Assembly (NCBI RefSeq): GCF_023520795.1
Contig: NZ_CP046605.1
Location: forward strand, 806,001-870,000
Origin: Corynebacterium accolens
GTDB lineage: Bacteria; Actinomycetota; Actinomycetes; Mycobacteriales; Mycobacteriaceae
Direction: 5' to 3'
Length of the DNA stretch: 64,000 bases
Positions 12,832 to 19,158 of this stretch are shown here, piece by piece. The notes under the pieces are model-generated. The model worked only from the letters and a program-made list of their open reading frames with translations. It had not been told where the DNA came from and did no database searches. Positions within the stretch are counted from its first letter, which is position 1; each line of letters starts with the position of its first letter. The translations under genes were made by a program, and so were the position numbers.

Positions 12832-13161
12832 ACAGTCACTGCCTTTCACTCATTGCAAAGCGGTGCGCATCTAAAAGTTGTGCGGCGCAGGATTGCTATA
12901 AATGTAACACTTATGCAATTGCGCAGTAGCGTTTGGGGGAGTGTGCAGCGGGTTCGTCGCGTCCGTGCCTATGGGCGTTCGCGGAGGAGCTTTGCGGCTG
13001 GTGTTGCCGTGGGAACTGGCGTTTGCGGCGTAGCGCCAAAGAATACCCCGAAAACGACTTTCGCCGCCTCACCTCGAAAGGTAGGCGGCGAAAGTTTATG
13101 GTTCTTTTACCGTGTCACACTTGCCAGCGGCAAAAGTGCGCTGTTGATACCCAGCTACTGT
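12832..13161. other. 330-bp intergenic region with terminator and promoter
   Basis: It holds the terminator hairpin of the ribosomal-protein operon (13057-13095). Near 12895-12930 the sequence is A+T-richer (minus-strand TTGCAT, then TTTATAGC) and is the likely promoter of the unknown gene at 12049-12831. No small gene was recognised. Confidence 0.45.
13057..13095 (-). terminator. Terminator of the rpmB-rpmG-rpsN-rpsR operon
   Basis: A 13-bp perfect stem (ACTTTCGCCGCCT with AGGCGGCGAAAGT) encloses a smaller 4-bp stem. On the minus strand it begins 66 bases after the rpsR stop and is followed by CGTTTTCGG. Confidence 0.75.
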
Positions 13162-13416
13162 TTAGCGGGTGGTGAACGGCAGGAGAGCCATTTCGCGTGC
13201 GTTCTTGACTGCGGTAGCAACCTGACGCTGCTGCTGCGGGGTCAAGCCGGTGACGCGACGGGAACGGATCTTGTGGCGATCCGAGATGAATAGACGCAGA
13301 GTCTTGGTGTCCTTGTAGTCCACCTTCTCAATGCCCTCAGCCTTCAAAGGGTTCTTCTTCGGGCGACGGCTCTGCTCCATACGGAACTTCTTTTGGTTAT
13401 TGCGCTTATTAGCCAT
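13162..13416 (-). CDS. rpsR: 30S ribosomal protein S18
   Basis: 84 residues with the S18 core [17 protein letters not shown] and [22 protein letters not shown]. It lies in the small-subunit platform beside S6 and S11. No Cys is present. It is the last gene of the rpmB-rpmG-rpsN-rpsR operon, 15 bases after rpsN, and is followed by a strong terminator. Confidence 0.96.
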
Positions 13417-13431
13417 TGTGCAATTACCCCT

Positions 13432-13737
13432 TTACCAGCTGGACTTGCGAACGCCCGGCAGCTCACCACGGTGAGCCATGCCGCGCATACGGACACGGGA
13501 CAGGCCGAACTTGCGGAGGTAACCGCGCGGGCGGCCATCGGCTGCGTCGCGGTTACGAACGCGGGCTGGGGAAGCGTCACGAGGCTGGCGGTTCAGCTCG
13601 AACTGAGCCTCCAAACGCTCCTCATCCGGGGTGTTCGGGTTCTTGATGATCTTCTTGAGCTCAGCGCGACGCTCCGCGTAGCGGGCGACGATTTCCTTGC
13701 GCTGCTCGTTCTTAGCGATCTTGGACTTCTTAGCCAT
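13432..13737 (-). CDS. rpsN: 30S ribosomal protein S14, zinc-free long form
   Basis: 101 residues; residues 1-30 are helical and basic ([20 protein letters not shown]) and the C-terminal half has [35 protein letters not shown]. The CxxC...CxxC zinc ribbon of the short form is absent, so this is the zinc-independent (C-) type. It lies 3 bases downstream of rpmG. Confidence 0.96.
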
Positions 13738-13740
13738 GAA

Positions 13741-13905
13741 TTATCGCTCCTCGCGGAATTCGACGTGCTTGCGGGCGATCGGATCGAACTTCTTCAGGGT
13801 GATGCGATCCGGGTTATTGCGCTTGTTCTTACGGGTCACGTAGGTGTAACCGGTGCCCGCAGTGGACTTCAGCTTGATGATTGGGCGAATATCGTTACGT
13901 GCCAT
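13741..13905 (-). CDS. rpmG: 50S ribosomal protein L33, zinc-free form
   Basis: 54 residues, [17 protein letters not shown] through [21 protein letters not shown] to HVEFREER. This is the L33 fold without the two CxxC pairs, hence the zinc-independent form. It lies 2 bases after rpmB and 3 before rpsN, an obvious operon. Confidence 0.95.
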
Positions 13906-13907
13906 AC

Positions 13908-14144
13908 TTAAATCTTCTCCCCACGTGCGCGGATCTTGGCAACAACGGACTCGATGCCGTCGCGGTCAATGATCTTCATACCCTTGGTGGAAACATTCAG
14001 AGTAATGGTACGGCCCTCAGAGGGCAGGTAGTAGCGACGACGCTGCACGTTGGGGTTCCAACGGCGCGAAGTGCGGCGGTGCGAGTGCGAGACCTGCTTG
14101 CCGAATTCCGGCTTGCGGCCCGTTACCTGGCAAATAGCCGACAT
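13908..14144 (-). CDS. rpmB: 50S ribosomal protein L28, zinc-free form
   Basis: 78 residues: [22 protein letters not shown] and [26 protein letters not shown] match L28. Only one Cys is present, so there is no CxxC zinc site. It is the first gene of the operon; AGGAGAAAGAAGA lies just upstream of the ATG. Confidence 0.95.
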
Positions 14145-14657
14145 GGGTCTTCTTTCTCCTAGCCGCCCACATCGTGGCTATAAACGACTACGTGCCGACT
14201 GCCGTGTGAGGGTGGCAGTGCTCAAAAAGTGAGGTGTGAGCAGGTGCGGCATCGTCGTCAAAAACCAGTAGACGGGGCGTAATACGTATATTTTGACAAC
14301 AGCAAGAGCAAATCTTACAGCCTTACTCGCGATATACCTAATCGCTGCCGCGATAGCCTCGCGCATTAAGCCGTCGGCTTTGCGTCGATGATCAAGCAGC
14401 ACTGCCTAACGCATTGGGGAGGTTTTAATGGTTACTATAACGAATGGGGCGCATATGTGCGCCTGTGGCGACTGTGGTTGCCGCAGGTGAGCAATTTCGT
14501 ATATATGGCGGTGGAATGTAGGATAATTCAGGTTATCGGTCGGCGCGCTTAGTGGCGCCGGGCGAGCTGTAACTGTACATCCCAACTCGGGCACGATCCG
14601 TACCGTCATTATTCAGTGTGCGGAACCGACCCGTAGTCCAACCCTGAGGGAATATCT
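14145..14657. promoter_or_regulatory. Divergent control region of two ribosomal operons, with L31 leader structure
   Basis: Some 510 bp without a gene. Towards rpmE lies a probable promoter near 14519-14524 (TGTAGGAT, extended -10 style), then a leader with a local hairpin CGGCGC/GCGCCG (14541-14560) and outer arms GGTCGG (14538-14543) and CCGACC (14626-14631). The two pairings overlap and so may be alternative. Leaders that let L31 repress its own mRNA are described for actinobacteria. A further hairpin lies at 14462-14487. Toward rpmB the minus strand has an A+T-rich block near 14280-14300 (TATACGTATTAC). I saw no clear palindrome of the Zur type. Confidence 0.45.
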
Positions 14658-14927
14658 ATGAAGAAAGACATCCACCCGGATTACCACCCAGTGGTCTTCC
14701 GTGATGCTGGTACCGGTCACTCCTTTTTGACCAAGTCCACCGCTACCTCTTCTCGCACCGTTGAGTGGGAAGACGGCAACGAGTACCCGCTCATCGTCGT
14801 TGACGTTACTGCTGAGTCCCACCCGTTCTGGACTGGTGCACAGCGCGTTATGGATACCGCTGGCCGTGTCGAGCGCTTCAACCAGCGCTTCGGTGCCATG
14901 GCTCGCCGCAAGAAGAAGAACGCGTAA
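14658..14927 (+). CDS. rpmE2: 50S ribosomal protein L31 type B (zinc-free)
   Basis: 89 residues. [20 protein letters not shown], then SHPFWTG and [10 protein letters not shown] identify L31; the absence of Cys marks type B, which replaces the zinc-containing L31 under zinc limitation in many bacteria. GAGGGA precedes the start. rpmF follows 15 bases downstream. The gene is divergent from the four-gene zinc-free operon. Confidence 0.96.
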
Positions 14928-14942
14928 GGAGAAGAAGAGAAA

Positions 14943-15116
14943 ATGGCAACTCCTAAGTTTAAGAAGTCCCGTGCGAACACCCACGCACGTCGTTCCCAGT
15001 GGAAGGCTGACAACGTCGCTCTCCAGGAAGTCACCATCGATGGTCAGACCGTGCGCATCCCGCGCCGCCTGGTCAAGGCCGCTAAGCTCGGCCTGGTTGA
15101 CGTAGAGCAGTTCTAA
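14943..15116 (+). CDS. rpmF: 50S ribosomal protein L32
   Basis: 57 residues: [21 protein letters not shown] is the L32 signature, followed by [22 protein letters not shown]. There is no Cys-based zinc site. The start has GGAGAAGAAGAG upstream and the gene is followed by a clear terminator at 15134. Confidence 0.95.
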
Positions 15117-15133
15117 GCCTGCTTTCAGTCTCA

Positions 15134-15180
15134 CCCCTCCCAGTTGCTTATTGGCAACTGCGAGGGGTTGTGATGTTTTA
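15134..15180 (+). terminator. Terminator of rpmE2-rpmF
   Basis: Stem CCCCTC-C-CAGTTGC / GCAACTG-C-GAGGGG with a 6-base loop and one internal mismatch, then TTGTGATGTTTT. It lies 17 bases after the rpmF stop. Confidence 0.8.
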
Positions 15181-15216
15181 GGCCCTTTTTAGGCACCGGT
15201 GATGGGCAATAAAGAG

Positions 15217-15245
15217 CGCCTGCCATCCCGGGTGGGTGGCAGGCG
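15217..15245 (-). terminator. Terminator downstream of glpT
   Basis: Perfect 9-bp stem (CGCCTGCCA / TGGCAGGCG) with an 11-base loop. Read on the minus strand it follows the end of the glpT reading frame and is trailed by CTCTTTATT. Confidence 0.65.
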
Positions 15246-15292
15246 GTGTAAGGAGAGTGCGCAGTAATAGTGCGTGCTCCTAAGTTGAAGGC

Positions 15293-16666
15293 TTATGCTT
15301 CAAGCGCGGCCTTGCGTTCTTCGGTGAGGCGCACTTCTTCCTTATTAATAAAGAGGAAGATGGCCAGAACGAGGATGGTAAAGAGCAGGAAGACCATGAA
15401 GGTGACATTCCAGCCGGCGTACTTGACCAAGTAGCCTACGCCGGTCGAGGCGAGCGTGGCACCAAGCAGGTAACCGAAAAGGCCTGTAAAGCCGGAGGCG
15501 GTACTTGCCACATTGCGTGGGGAGAGGTCGAGGGCCTGCAAACCGATGAGGCCAACCGGACCGTAGATGAAGGCACCGATGAGCGCGATGAAGATAACCA
15601 TGATCGCGAACGGGGTGCCTACGGGGGCCAGCCAGTAGCCGGCGATGGACAGGCCCGTAGCCAAGATAAAGATCAAGATGACCTTAGAGCGGTTGCCGTG
15701 GAAGAGCTTATCGGACATCCAGCCGCAGAGAATGGTGCCCAGCAGGCCTGCGAGCTCGAAGGCGCCGAAGGCGACCAGGCCGGAATTGATGTTCATGTGG
15801 TGGACTTCAGCGAGGTACGTCGTAATCCAGTTGAGCACGCCGTAGCGCAGTGCATAGACAAATACGTTGGCGATGGCCAAGAGGACAATGATGCGGTTGC
15901 GCAGGACGTATTTGAAAATGAGATCCTTGGTGGAGATTCCATCGCCTTCTTGCCGCTGGATATCTGCAACCTTGGCGGGATCATTGCGCTATTCATCGAC
16001 CGTCGGCAGTCCTTCTGAAGGCGGGTTATCGCGGATGAGTAAGAAAGCTAAGGCCGCGATGATCAGGGCCGCGACTGCGGGGAGCCAAAAGGCTACCTGC
16101 CATTGATTGCCGGTCATCGCCAAGCCGACGCCTACCAGCAGCGGTAATACGCCTGCACCCACATTGTGCGAGGTATTCCACAGTGATCCCTTCCAGCCGC
16201 GCTCGGATGTAGAGAACCATTGCACGATGACGCGGCCGCATGGTGGGTGCCCCATGCCTTGGAACCAACCATTGAGGAACATGACGGTGGCAAAGACGCC
16301 TACGGATGCAGAGACCCACGGGACGAAGCCGACTATCAGGTTCATCAGTGCGGATAGACTCAGTCCGATGGGCAGGAAGTAACGCGCATTGGATTGGTCC
16401 GCGAGCATGGCGGAAAAGAATTTGGATAAGCCATAAGAAATCAGCACGGCATTACTAATGATGCCGATTGCAGGCTTGTCGATGGTCCCGTTATCTTCCA
16501 GCAGCAGCGGCGCGATGGTGGAGATGTTATTGCGGATGAGGTAAAAGCCCGCGTAACCCAGGAAGATTCCCATAAAGACCTGGAAACGAAGCCGGGGGAA
16601 TTTCTTGTCAACGTCCTCTTTAGGTAATTGAGGGCGTGGGCGGGGAGATTTGAGCCATGTCAGCAC
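15293..16666 (-). pseudogene. glpT: glpT-like glycerol-3-phosphate transporter split by an in-frame TAG
   Basis: The frame is continuous from a GTG at 16666 (AAGGAG upstream) to 15293: 457 sense codons plus one TAG at 15989-15991. The two parts align end to end with GlpT of the organophosphate:phosphate antiporter family (MFS, E. coli length 452). Matches include MGIFLGYAGFYLIRNN, FVPWVSASVGVF, NGWFQGMGHPPCGR, NTSHNVGAG, IANVFVYALRYGVLNW, LCGWMSDKLFHGNRSK and ASGFTGLFGYLLGA. The TAG falls in the central cytosolic loop (GLPTVDE-stop-RNDPAK) where E. coli has Tyr, so a TAC/TAT-to-TAG change is the simplest cause. A truncated 225-residue product would lack half of the transporter. Readthrough or a sequencing error cannot be excluded. 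Confidence 0.88.
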
Positions 16667-16701
16667 TGCCTACTCCTTGGGTCGTAAAAGGTTCAACGAA
16701 A

Positions 16702-16732
16702 TTAACTTAAAGTTAAAACTAAGCTAACCCTA
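16702..16732. promoter_or_regulatory. A+T-rich palindrome and DtxR-like half-match upstream of glpT
   Basis: TTAACTT-A-AAGTTAA is a perfect 15-bp palindrome (16702-16716). Overlapping it, the 19 bases at 16714-16732 resemble the iron-regulator DtxR box on the minus strand: the AGGGTTAGCTTA half is good, the other half poor. They lie 36-66 bases upstream of the glpT start. The palindrome is direct observation; any regulator is a guess. The rest of the 320-bp gap to htrA has no gene and must hold the htrA promoter. Confidence 0.35.
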
Positions 16733-16985
16733 AGTTAAATATAAAGGTACACTAACCTGATGGTGGATCGATTTTATGCCCCGGTGATTCTGTTTACAGC
16801 AGTGCGCGCTGAAGGATGGAAGAATGCTTAATAGGGGTGATGGTGCAGTCGCGTGCGAGTGCCAAGAGGGCGTCAAATGTGGTGAGTTTGACCAGCTTAT
16901 CGCCTACAGTAACTTCACAGGAACTTCTAGTAGGTTGGCAGAGTAGTTTAAGTCATGACCAAGCGAAGCGAGGCATAGTGTTCCT

Positions 16986-18488
16986 ATGAACATGAGGAAT
17001 GATGACAACCGCGGCAATAATGGTGGGTCGCACGGTGTCCCGCAGGATCCCTACGGCACGAGTAACGGGCAGACGCCATATAACCAGCCGCGCGGCGGCC
17101 AACAGGATTCTGGATCCGCGTATTCCAACGGAACCTATTCCCAAGGCTGGAACCAGCCGCGCATCAACGAGCAGGAGGCACAAGCCTCCGCGCACGGGAG
17201 CGAGGCACCGTGGCACGCGCAGCACACCCCGCCCAGCAATCGCCTTTTTGGTGGCACTCAGCCGGGTGCTACCCGCGGGCAGGAGGAAACATCTAGCTTC
17301 GCTACCCAGCAGGGCGATTACTCCCAGCAGGGGCCTGCGAATAACCAGCCTGGCCAGCCGCCCGTGCCTGGGGTAACGCCTTTGCCGCCGCAGTCAAAGG
17401 AGAAAAGGAAGATCGGGCTGGGTGCCGCGACGGCAATTGCAGCAGTAGCGGCAATCGCTGCAGGCTCCATTACCGGCGTGGTCGTGGGCAAGAACCAATC
17501 CAGCAGCGGCACGTCTGTGGTCAATGAGGCGCTCAATAGTAAACCGGCCGCCAATAGCATGGGCAAGGAGCCGGAGGAAGGCTCGGTGGAAGCAGTTTCT
17601 GCCAAGGTTTTGCCGGCCGTGGTATCTATTCAGACTGCTACCCGGACCTCGGCTGCGGAAGGTTCCGGTTCCATCATTTCTCCTGATGGTTACGTGTTGA
17701 CCAACCACCACGTCATCGCCGGCGCAGAGCAGGGCGGCATCATGCAGGTGACCTTGAATGATGGCAGCAAGCACGAAGCCGATCTCGTGGCTTCCGATGC
17801 CAATACGGATGTCGCCATCATCAAGATCAAGGACGTGCACGACTTGCCGCACCTGCAATTCGGTGACTCGGATGCGGTAGCGGTTGGCCAGGAAGTAGTC
17901 GCCGTCGGCTCGCCGCTCGGCCTCAATGCCACGGTGACCTCCGGCATCGTATCCGCGAAGAACCGCCCGGTGCGCGCGTCTCAGCAGGGTGGCGAGTCCT
18001 CGCTTATCGATGCCATCCAGACCGACGCCGCCGTCAACCCCGGCAACTCCGGTGGTCCCTTGGTGGATATGGAAGGCAATATCGTTGGTATGAACTCGAT
18101 GATTGCGTCGTTGTCCGATAAAACCTCGGGTGAGGGTGGATCTATCGGCCTCGGGTTTGCCATTCCTTCCAACTTTGCCAAGCGCATGGCTGATGAGCTC
18201 ATCAATAAAGGCCACGTAACCCACCCCACCTTGGGGGTTAAGGTCCTGGCGCGCGATGACGGAAATGGCGCGCGCATTGCAGAGGTCGAGCCAGGGGGAC
18301 CAGCGGATCAAGCAGGTTTGAAGCAGGGCGATATCGTCACCCGCGTCAATGACCGGCTGATTGAAAATGCCGATGCGCTTATCGCTGCCGCGCGTTCCCA
18401 GGACTTCGGTGCGACCGTCACCTTGGAAGTATCCGATGGACATTCGGATGACACTCGTCAGGTAGAGGTAACCCTGACAGGCGAGTAG
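16986..18488 (+). CDS. HtrA/DegP-like membrane-anchored serine protease with PDZ domain
   Basis: 500 residues. A cytoplasmic Gln/Asn/Gly/Pro-rich stretch of about 135 residues precedes one membrane span (about 143-167), a trypsin-like domain and a C-terminal PDZ domain (about 400-495, IAEVEPGGPADQAGLKQGDIVTRV). The catalytic triad is His242 (LTNHHVI), Asp275 (TDVAIIKI) and Ser355 (NPGNSGGPL). Such proteases degrade or sense misfolded exported proteins; the mycobacterial relative is PepD/HtrA. In C. glutamicum a comparable gene occupies this place before mog. A mog-like gene follows after 61 bases. Confidence 0.93.
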   Translation: MNMRNDDNRGNNGGSHGVPQDPYGTSNGQTPYNQPRGGQQDSGSAYSNGTYSQGWNQPRINEQEAQASAHGSEAPWHAQHTPPSNRLFGGTQPGATRGQEETSSFATQQGDYSQQGPANNQPGQPPVPGVTPLPPQSKEKRKIGLGAATAIAAVAAIAAGSITGVVVGKNQSSSGTSVVNEALNSKPAANSMGKEPEEGSVEAVSAKVLPAVVSIQTATRTSAAEGSGSIISPDGYVLTNHHVIAGAEQGGIMQVTLNDGSKHEADLVASDANTDVAIIKIKDVHDLPHLQFGDSDAVAVGQEVVAVGSPLGLNATVTSGIVSAKNRPVRASQQGGESSLIDAIQTDAAVNPGNSGGPLVDMEGNIVGMNSMIASLSDKTSGEGGSIGLGFAIPSNFAKRMADELINKGHVTHPTLGVKVLARDDGNGARIAEVEPGGPADQAGLKQGDIVTRVNDRLIENADALIAAARSQDFGATVTLEVSDGHSDDTRQVEVTLTGE

Positions 18489-18549
18489 ATTAAAACGCAG
18501 CCCGCGCCGTGTCCGCATTGCGCCCCCGACGTTTCTTTGAAGGAGAAAA

Positions 18550-19158
18550 ATGGCAGACTCCCAGCAAGACTTGACCGACTCCACCAGGTTGGAGGATTCG
18601 GCTTCCACAGACGCTTTGCGGGATGTGGCGGAGCCGGATGATGCCTACCTTTTGGCCAGCGAGAAAGAGGACCGGGTGGCGGCACCGCGCCGCGCGCTCG
18701 TCGTGATAGTCACGGATCACCCCGGCGAAAATTCAGATAGCACCTCCAAATTGGTTACTGAACTTTTGGCAGAGGCGAATTTCCGCATCGATGGTTCGGT
18801 GGTCGTGCGCTCGAAGAAATCCAAGATCCGGCAGGCCATTGAGACTGGCGTCGTCGGCGGTGTAGACCTCGTTCTCACCGTCGGCGGCACCGGAGTGAGC
18901 CCGCGCGATAAGACCCCAGAGGCTACCACTGGGGTCATCGACAAGATGGTGCCAGGCGTGGCCCAAGCTCTGCGCTCTTCTGGTCAGGCGTGCGGCGCGG
19001 TCGATGCGTGCGCATCCCGCGGCATTTCGGGCGTTTCTGGTTCCACCGTCGTGGTCAACCTCGCACCATCGCGCGCTGCCGTGCGCGATGGCATGGCCAC
19101 GTTGACCCCGCTGGTCCACCACCTTGTGGATCAATTGCAAGAATCCAGCGTGCAATAA
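18550..19158 (+). CDS. MogA/MoaB-family molybdopterin biosynthesis protein
   Basis: 202 residues. The first about 48 are acidic and not part of the domain. The MoCF-binding domain follows: RRALVVIVTDHPGENSDSTSKLV, then the family signature TVGGTGVSPRDKTPEAT, then RGISGVSGSTVVVNLAPSRAAV. Family members adenylylate molybdopterin before metal insertion. AAGGAG lies before the ATG. It sits between htrA and a small unknown gene, in the same direction, probably one transcript. Confidence 0.85.
   Translation: MADSQQDLTDSTRLEDSASTDALRDVAEPDDAYLLASEKEDRVAAPRRALVVIVTDHPGENSDSTSKLVTELLAEANFRIDGSVVVRSKKSKIRQAIETGVVGGVDLVLTVGGTGVSPRDKTPEATTGVIDKMVPGVAQALRSSGQACGAVDACASRGISGVSGSTVVVNLAPSRAAVRDGMATLTPLVHHLVDQLQESSVQ

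What the first reader, a model, noticed from the sequence alone, without database searches (positions are those of the whole stretch)
15293..16666. glpT interrupted by a single in-frame TAG
The frame is otherwise perfect over 457 codons. The amber codon at 15989-15991 sits where E. coli GlpT has Tyr in the central loop, so one base change (TAC or TAT to TAG) explains it and decay has not begun. Loss of GlpT is a known route to fosfomycin resistance because GlpT imports fosfomycin, and it would also stop glycerol-3-phosphate uptake. Alternatives are amber readthrough, two separately translated halves (a second start would be needed), or a base-calling error.
Basis: partly seen in the sequence, partly recalled or inferred. 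Interest (0 to 1): 0.7.

Follow-up and report, generated by a model that had tools for sequence, protein, structure and literature searches.

The report
Broken glycerol-3-phosphate transporter gene, repeatedly lost
A gene for importing glycerol-3-phosphate in a Corynebacterium carries a recent stop codon, and close relatives have lost the same gene through different mutations, so it looks disposable in this group rather than knocked out by the antibiotic fosfomycin.

Summary
The window lies in a single-contig 2.47 Mb Corynebacterium genome; its minus-strand glpT (16666..15293) is interrupted only by an in-frame TAG at 15989-15991, between the two halves of the transporter. It is best read as a young nonsense mutation: none of the 50 tRNAs found reads TAG, TAG is an ordinary terminator here, and the second half has no credible start. 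The three closest relatives do not have Tyr there. Fosfomycin selection is unlikely: MurA already has Asp in place of the fosfomycin-binding Cys (31 of 31 corynebacterial loci read), and corynebacteria are isolated on fosfomycin agar. The new fact is recurrence. Of six closely related genomes only C. macginleyi CCUG 32361 has an intact copy: the window has this TAG, MSK130 another TAG, a MAG a 1-base deletion, and two genomes a shared deletion. That is three firm losses and one probable. The window's genome also lacks the Ugp-like importer that the other five keep, so it probably cannot import glycerol-3-phosphate. Ordinary as a mutation; mildly interesting as convergent loss.

The parts
15293..16666 (-). 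glpT, glycerol-3-phosphate:phosphate antiporter gene with one internal stop
16673..16678 (-). Ribosome-binding site AAGGAG upstream of the GTG start
   Evidence: Sequence; kept in the three close copies and, in altered form, in the two deleted ones
15992..16666 (-). Open first half, 225 codons, N-terminal six-helix half
15989..15991 (-). In-frame TAG at codon 226, in the loop between the two halves
   Evidence: 1pw4 alignment ends at residue 221 for the first half and resumes at 236 for the second
15296..15988 (-). Open second half, 231 codons, not expected to be translated
   Evidence: the first start-like codon after the stop is TTG at codon 263, without a ribosome-binding site
15186..16641 (.). 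Stretch missing from genomes G187 and G205, replaced there by about 50 bases

Best explanation
The TAG is a recent nonsense mutation that inactivates glpT. The leader and ribosome-binding site are intact, so the cell probably makes only the first 225 residues, half a transporter, which would not be expected to work (inferred). The gene's closest relative outside the group is in Actinomycetaceae, so it was probably gained by horizontal transfer (inferred from one tree). In the small group around C. macginleyi it has since become dispensable and has been lost by at least three different lesions (shown as sequence) and probably a fourth. Glycerol kinase and glycerol-3-phosphate dehydrogenase genes are kept (shown). 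In the window's genome the Ugp-like ABC importer is missing too (shown), so uptake of glycerol-3-phosphate is probably gone. A likely reason is that these lipase-bearing surface commensals use glycerol instead (inferred). Fosfomycin is not needed as a cause.
For: Single lesion in a conserved frame. Window-private changes 38 synonymous to 2 nonsynonymous; if the gene had drifted freely over the whole branch about 109 nonsynonymous changes would be expected, which puts the stop in about the last 6% of the branch. None of 50 tRNAs reads a stop codon. Different lesions in relatives: L003 TAG at codon 163, L001 a 1-base deletion, G187 and G205 a deletion with a 5' scar. Broken copies 3 of 4 here against 1 of 30 elsewhere in the genus, p = 0.0026; stops only, 2 of 4 against 1 of 30, p = 0.031. 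GlpD and GlpK frames without stops in 6 of 6. UgpB-like protein in 5 of 6, absent from G000, its syntenic place replaced. Asp in MurA.
Against: The low nonsynonymous count after the stop would also fit a protein that is still made. No reads, expression or transport data. The MAG's 1-base deletion lies in a short run of one base and changes only the end of the protein; it may be an assembly error or harmless. The Fisher test is post hoc and ignores relatedness. That G187 and G205 lost the gene, rather than never having had it, rests on about 25 leftover bases.
Confidence: 0.8

Rival explanations
1. Fosfomycin, in the clinic or in isolation agar, selected the loss of its importer GlpT.
For: GlpT is a known entry route for fosfomycin (PMC9346081, passages). 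Corynebacteria are isolated on fosfomycin agar. Losses recur in one group.
Against: MurA has the insensitive Asp in G000 and in 30 of 30 other corynebacterial loci read; the other five genomes of the group were not among them. One lesion is in a metagenome-assembled genome, so not from selective agar. PMC12542688 tested fosfomycin discs, but its results table was not seen.
Confidence: 0.06
2. The TAG is read through at a useful rate and full-length GlpT is still made.
For: The second half shows 26 synonymous to 2 nonsynonymous private changes. The stop falls in a loop, where a foreign residue might be tolerated.
Against: No tRNA with anticodon CTA among 50. TAG ends 25 of 53 long ORFs of the window. 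The relatives' lesions are of other kinds and at other places.
Confidence: 0.06
3. The two halves are translated apart and assemble into a split transporter.
For: The stop lies between the two six-helix halves.
Against: After the stop the first in-frame start-like codons are at 263 (TTG), 277 (GTG) and 291 (ATG), none with a ribosome-binding site; starting at 263 would cut the seventh helix (helix placement by eye).
Confidence: 0.03
4. The TAG is a sequencing or assembly error.
For: Nothing else in the gene is decayed; no reads could be checked.
Against: Single-contig genome listed as 100% complete and 0.02% contaminated. The change is a substitution, not a homopolymer length change. Other lesions in relatives show that the gene is dispensable.
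Confidence: 0.05

Closest known systems
GlpT, glycerol-3-phosphate:phosphate antiporter (TIGR00712, NF008433; E. coli GlpT, PDB 1pw4)
   Same: Both halves match in order over nearly the whole length.
   Different: Interrupted by TAG at codon 226. The corynebacterial copies found score below the TIGR00712 cut-off (0 of 242 genomes over it), so the exact substrate is inferred.
Loss-of-function glpT mutations that give fosfomycin resistance in E. coli and Pseudomonas (recalled; GlpT as entry route in PMC9346081, passages)
   Same: Inactivation of the importer.
   Different: Here the target MurA is already of the insensitive type, so resistance need not come from glpT.
Convergent pseudogene formation in host-adapted bacteria (general knowledge)
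   Same: Different lesions in the same gene in related genomes, with the rest of the frame still conserved.
   Different: The gene is probably a horizontal acquisition; the cause of loss is not known.

Membership tests
GlpT (organophosphate:phosphate antiporter family, MFS) | Best match to GlpT models over both halves | tested here: met
   PF07690 over cut-off in both halves
GlpT (organophosphate:phosphate antiporter family, MFS) | Score over the curated GlpT cut-off | tested here: not met
   Halves 255 and 209 bits against 632.55; full-length corynebacterial copies also below it, 0 of 242 genomes over it
GlpT (organophosphate:phosphate antiporter family, MFS) | Uninterrupted reading frame | tested here: not met
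   TAG at 15989-15991
GlpT (organophosphate:phosphate antiporter family, MFS) | Glycerol-3-phosphate transport | not testable with these tools
   Needs an uptake assay
Fosfomycin resistance through loss of import | A fosfomycin-sensitive MurA, so that import matters | tested here: not met
   Asp at the Cys position
Programmed or suppressor-driven amber readthrough | A tRNA that reads TAG | tested here: not met
   None among 50 tRNA hits of the genome
Recurrent pseudogene of one clade | Different lesions in the same gene in related genomes | tested here: met

The most novel reading that the evidence does not exclude
GlpT is actively selected against in this group of surface-living corynebacteria, because it lets in some harmful host- or competitor-made organophosphate or phosphonate other than fosfomycin, or wastes phosphate. 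That would explain a group-specific run of different losses while most other MFS matches in the same genomes show no stop.
Probability: 0.12. Interest if true: 0.6.

Novelty: new member of a known kind. Interest (0 to 1): 0.3.

Why it matters
It corrects an easy but probably wrong reading: loss of GlpT need not mean acquired fosfomycin resistance in corynebacteria, whose MurA is already of the insensitive type. It also gives a small case of convergent gene loss. A set of close relatives with intact, stopped, frameshifted and deleted copies of one importer could be used to test what glycerol-3-phosphate uptake is worth to bacteria of human surfaces.

Tried and rejected
Amber suppression was rejected after reading the anticodons of all 50 tRNA hits. 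Separate translation of the second half was rejected for lack of a credible start. Redundancy with a Ugp importer was rejected as the reason in the window's genome, which lacks it; it could still apply to the other five. Original absence of glpT in G187 and G205 is disfavoured, because the leader and about 25 bases of the gene's 5' end remain. A flagged MFS match at G000 995338 lies at the end of an open 423-codon frame and is taken as the natural end. The MFS control is against uniqueness: another MFS gene (G000 near 783 kb) is interrupted in all six genomes. Literature searches for corynebacterial glpT loss (listings; passages) gave no report of it; this covers the held library only. PMC3078919 lists glpT in a C. 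pseudotuberculosis island and PMC2830990 lists it for C. aurimucosum (passages). No structure prediction was made, since both halves align with a solved structure.

Full report
What is there. The window is G000:C1:806001-870000 of a single-contig genome of 2,465,625 bases. Window G+C is 60%. glpT lies on the minus strand between ribosomal protein genes and an HtrA-like protease gene (neighbours named by eye from the translations). It starts with GTG at 16666 behind AAGGAG and ends with TAA at 15293-15295. The only interruption is TAG at 15989-15991, codon 226. The halves match GlpT models and E. coli GlpT 1pw4 on either side of the central loop.

Relatives. One scan of named genomes with the first half gave 46 loci. 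In 44 of 46 the script found no stop between the two halves. The exceptions are L003 (Corynebacterium sp. MSK130, one stop) and L036 (matches 1404 bases apart, probably a mispairing). At codon 226 the three closest copies have a sense codon, the same in all three and not Tyr. L003 has its own TAG, at codon 163. L001, a metagenome-assembled genome, lacks one base near the 3' end, in a short run of one base, which alters the end of the protein; its effect is uncertain. L002, C. macginleyi CCUG 32361, is intact. L001, L003 and L002 are the same sequences as G181, G182 and G147 (100% over 9.0, 7.1 and 6.8 kb).

The locus in the genus. A search of 242 corynebacterial genomes with window DNA 13000-19000 put G181 (95%), G182 (94%) and G147 (90%) closest. 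G205 and G187 match both flanks but lack window 15186-16641, with about 50 other bases in its place. Their sequence keeps the leader and about 25 bases of the gene's start, with the start codon altered, so the gene was probably present and deleted. The two share the junction and are counted as one event; their relationship was not tested by a tree. Thus one of six genomes has an intact copy, with three firm loss events (two different TAGs, one deletion) and one probable (1-base deletion).

Is this unusual? With TIGR00712, 34 of 242 genomes have a match at 1e-60 or better. Among their best copies, stops are flagged in G000, G182 and G116; the frameshift of G181 was seen by alignment. G116, elsewhere in the genus, is split over several frames. 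So 3 of 4 copies are broken here against 1 of 30 elsewhere: p = 0.0026, or 0.031 counting stops only. Second, weaker copies were left out, one of which (G070) has a TGA. The test is post hoc and ignores relatedness. As a second control, MFS matches of the same genomes were listed. In G000 4 of 36 are flagged with stops: glpT, the natural end at 995338, the gene near 783 kb, and one below the cut-off. In the other five, of 153 matches (list cut at the weak end), 8 of the rows shown are flagged, glpT of G182 among them. One other MFS gene, 30-38 kb away in the five genomes where both places lie on one contig, is interrupted in all six. So glpT is not the only MFS gene lost in this group.

Age. 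Window-private substitutions are 12 synonymous and 0 nonsynonymous in codons 1-225, and 26 and 2 in codons 227-457. Free drift over the whole branch would give about 109 nonsynonymous changes; two observed, with an upper 95% bound of 6.3, puts the stop in about the last 6% of the branch (simple site counts, no correction). The same figures would fit a protein that is still made, so they do not decide between recency and readthrough.

Readthrough and split protein. The genome has 50 tRNA hits. ARAGORN gave an anticodon for each; none is CTA, TTA or TCA. TAG ends 25 of 53 long, largely non-overlapping ORFs of the window, TAA 23 and TGA 5; one of the 25 is presumably the first half of glpT itself. 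The first in-frame start-like codon after the stop is TTG at codon 263, without a ribosome-binding site.

Fosfomycin. The MurA of G000 reads GGDAIGSRPLDMH where the two best solved structures have Cys in place of the Asp. Asp stands there in G000 and in 30 of 30 further loci read, the best-scoring ones of a 61-genome search; the other five genomes of the group were not among the 61. One review states that Asp at this place contributes to the intrinsic resistance of M. tuberculosis, and another that the residue needed for inhibition is absent there (PMC6378297; PMC5964476; passages). Corynebacteria are enriched or purified on agar with 25-100 ug/ml fosfomycin (PMC11651106; PMC12542688) and counted on 20-25 ug/ml (PMC4988121); passages only. 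PMC12542688 also tested fosfomycin discs, but the passages shown gave no result. GlpT loss would therefore be expected to add little.

What is lost. GlpD (C-terminal domain, in a 583-codon frame) and GlpK show no stop in 6 of 6 genomes. A UgpB-like binding protein is in 5 of 6 and absent from G000 by two searches. In G182 it lies in an operon whose four proteins match UgpC (over the cut-off), UgpB, UgpE and UgpA best, the last three below their cut-offs. In G000 the corresponding place holds a 302-residue ORF without an NCBIfam match at 1e-10. In C. glutamicum ugpAEBC encodes a glycerol-3-phosphate importer induced by phosphate limitation (PMC3353115, passages). So the window's organism has probably lost both known routes while keeping glycerol use. 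Putative lipase genes in C. accolens and C. macginleyi (PMC11438203, passages) make glycerol a plausible substitute; that link is inference.

Origin. In a tree of 42 first-half sequences the window's copy and the three close ones group together (100/100) and then with Actinotignum timonense of Actinomycetaceae (97/91); other corynebacterial copies are mixed with Actinomycetaceae. Gain by horizontal transfer followed by repeated loss is the simplest reading; the direction of transfer was not tested.

Verdict. Its interest lies in the recurrence and in correcting the fosfomycin reading.

Noticed in passing
L185 (G000:C1:782800-785000, outside the window) and L186-L190: A second MFS gene, resembling a drug-efflux type by eye, is interrupted in all six genomes of the group; an old pseudogene beside an intact 154-codon frame.
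   Followed up: partly
L209:10155-11267 (G000:C1 near 650 kb) against L208:7413-12839: The Ugp-like operon of the relatives is replaced in the window's genome by a 302-residue ORF without an NCBIfam match (lipoprotein-like start by eye).
   Followed up: partly
L002:6443-7925: C. macginleyi CCUG 32361 has an insert of about 1.5 kb just downstream of its intact glpT, holding a 418-codon frame that looks like a transposase (by eye).
   Followed up: no
window 1-64000: TAG and TAA are about equally common terminators of long ORFs (25 and 23 of 53) and TGA is rare (5).
   Followed up: no
L192 (G116:C1:2299800-2302800): A more distant Corynebacterium also has a glpT split over several frames.
   Followed up: partly
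L153 and L155-L184: Corynebacterial MurA carries Asp at the fosfomycin-binding Cys position in 31 of 31 loci read.
   Followed up: yes
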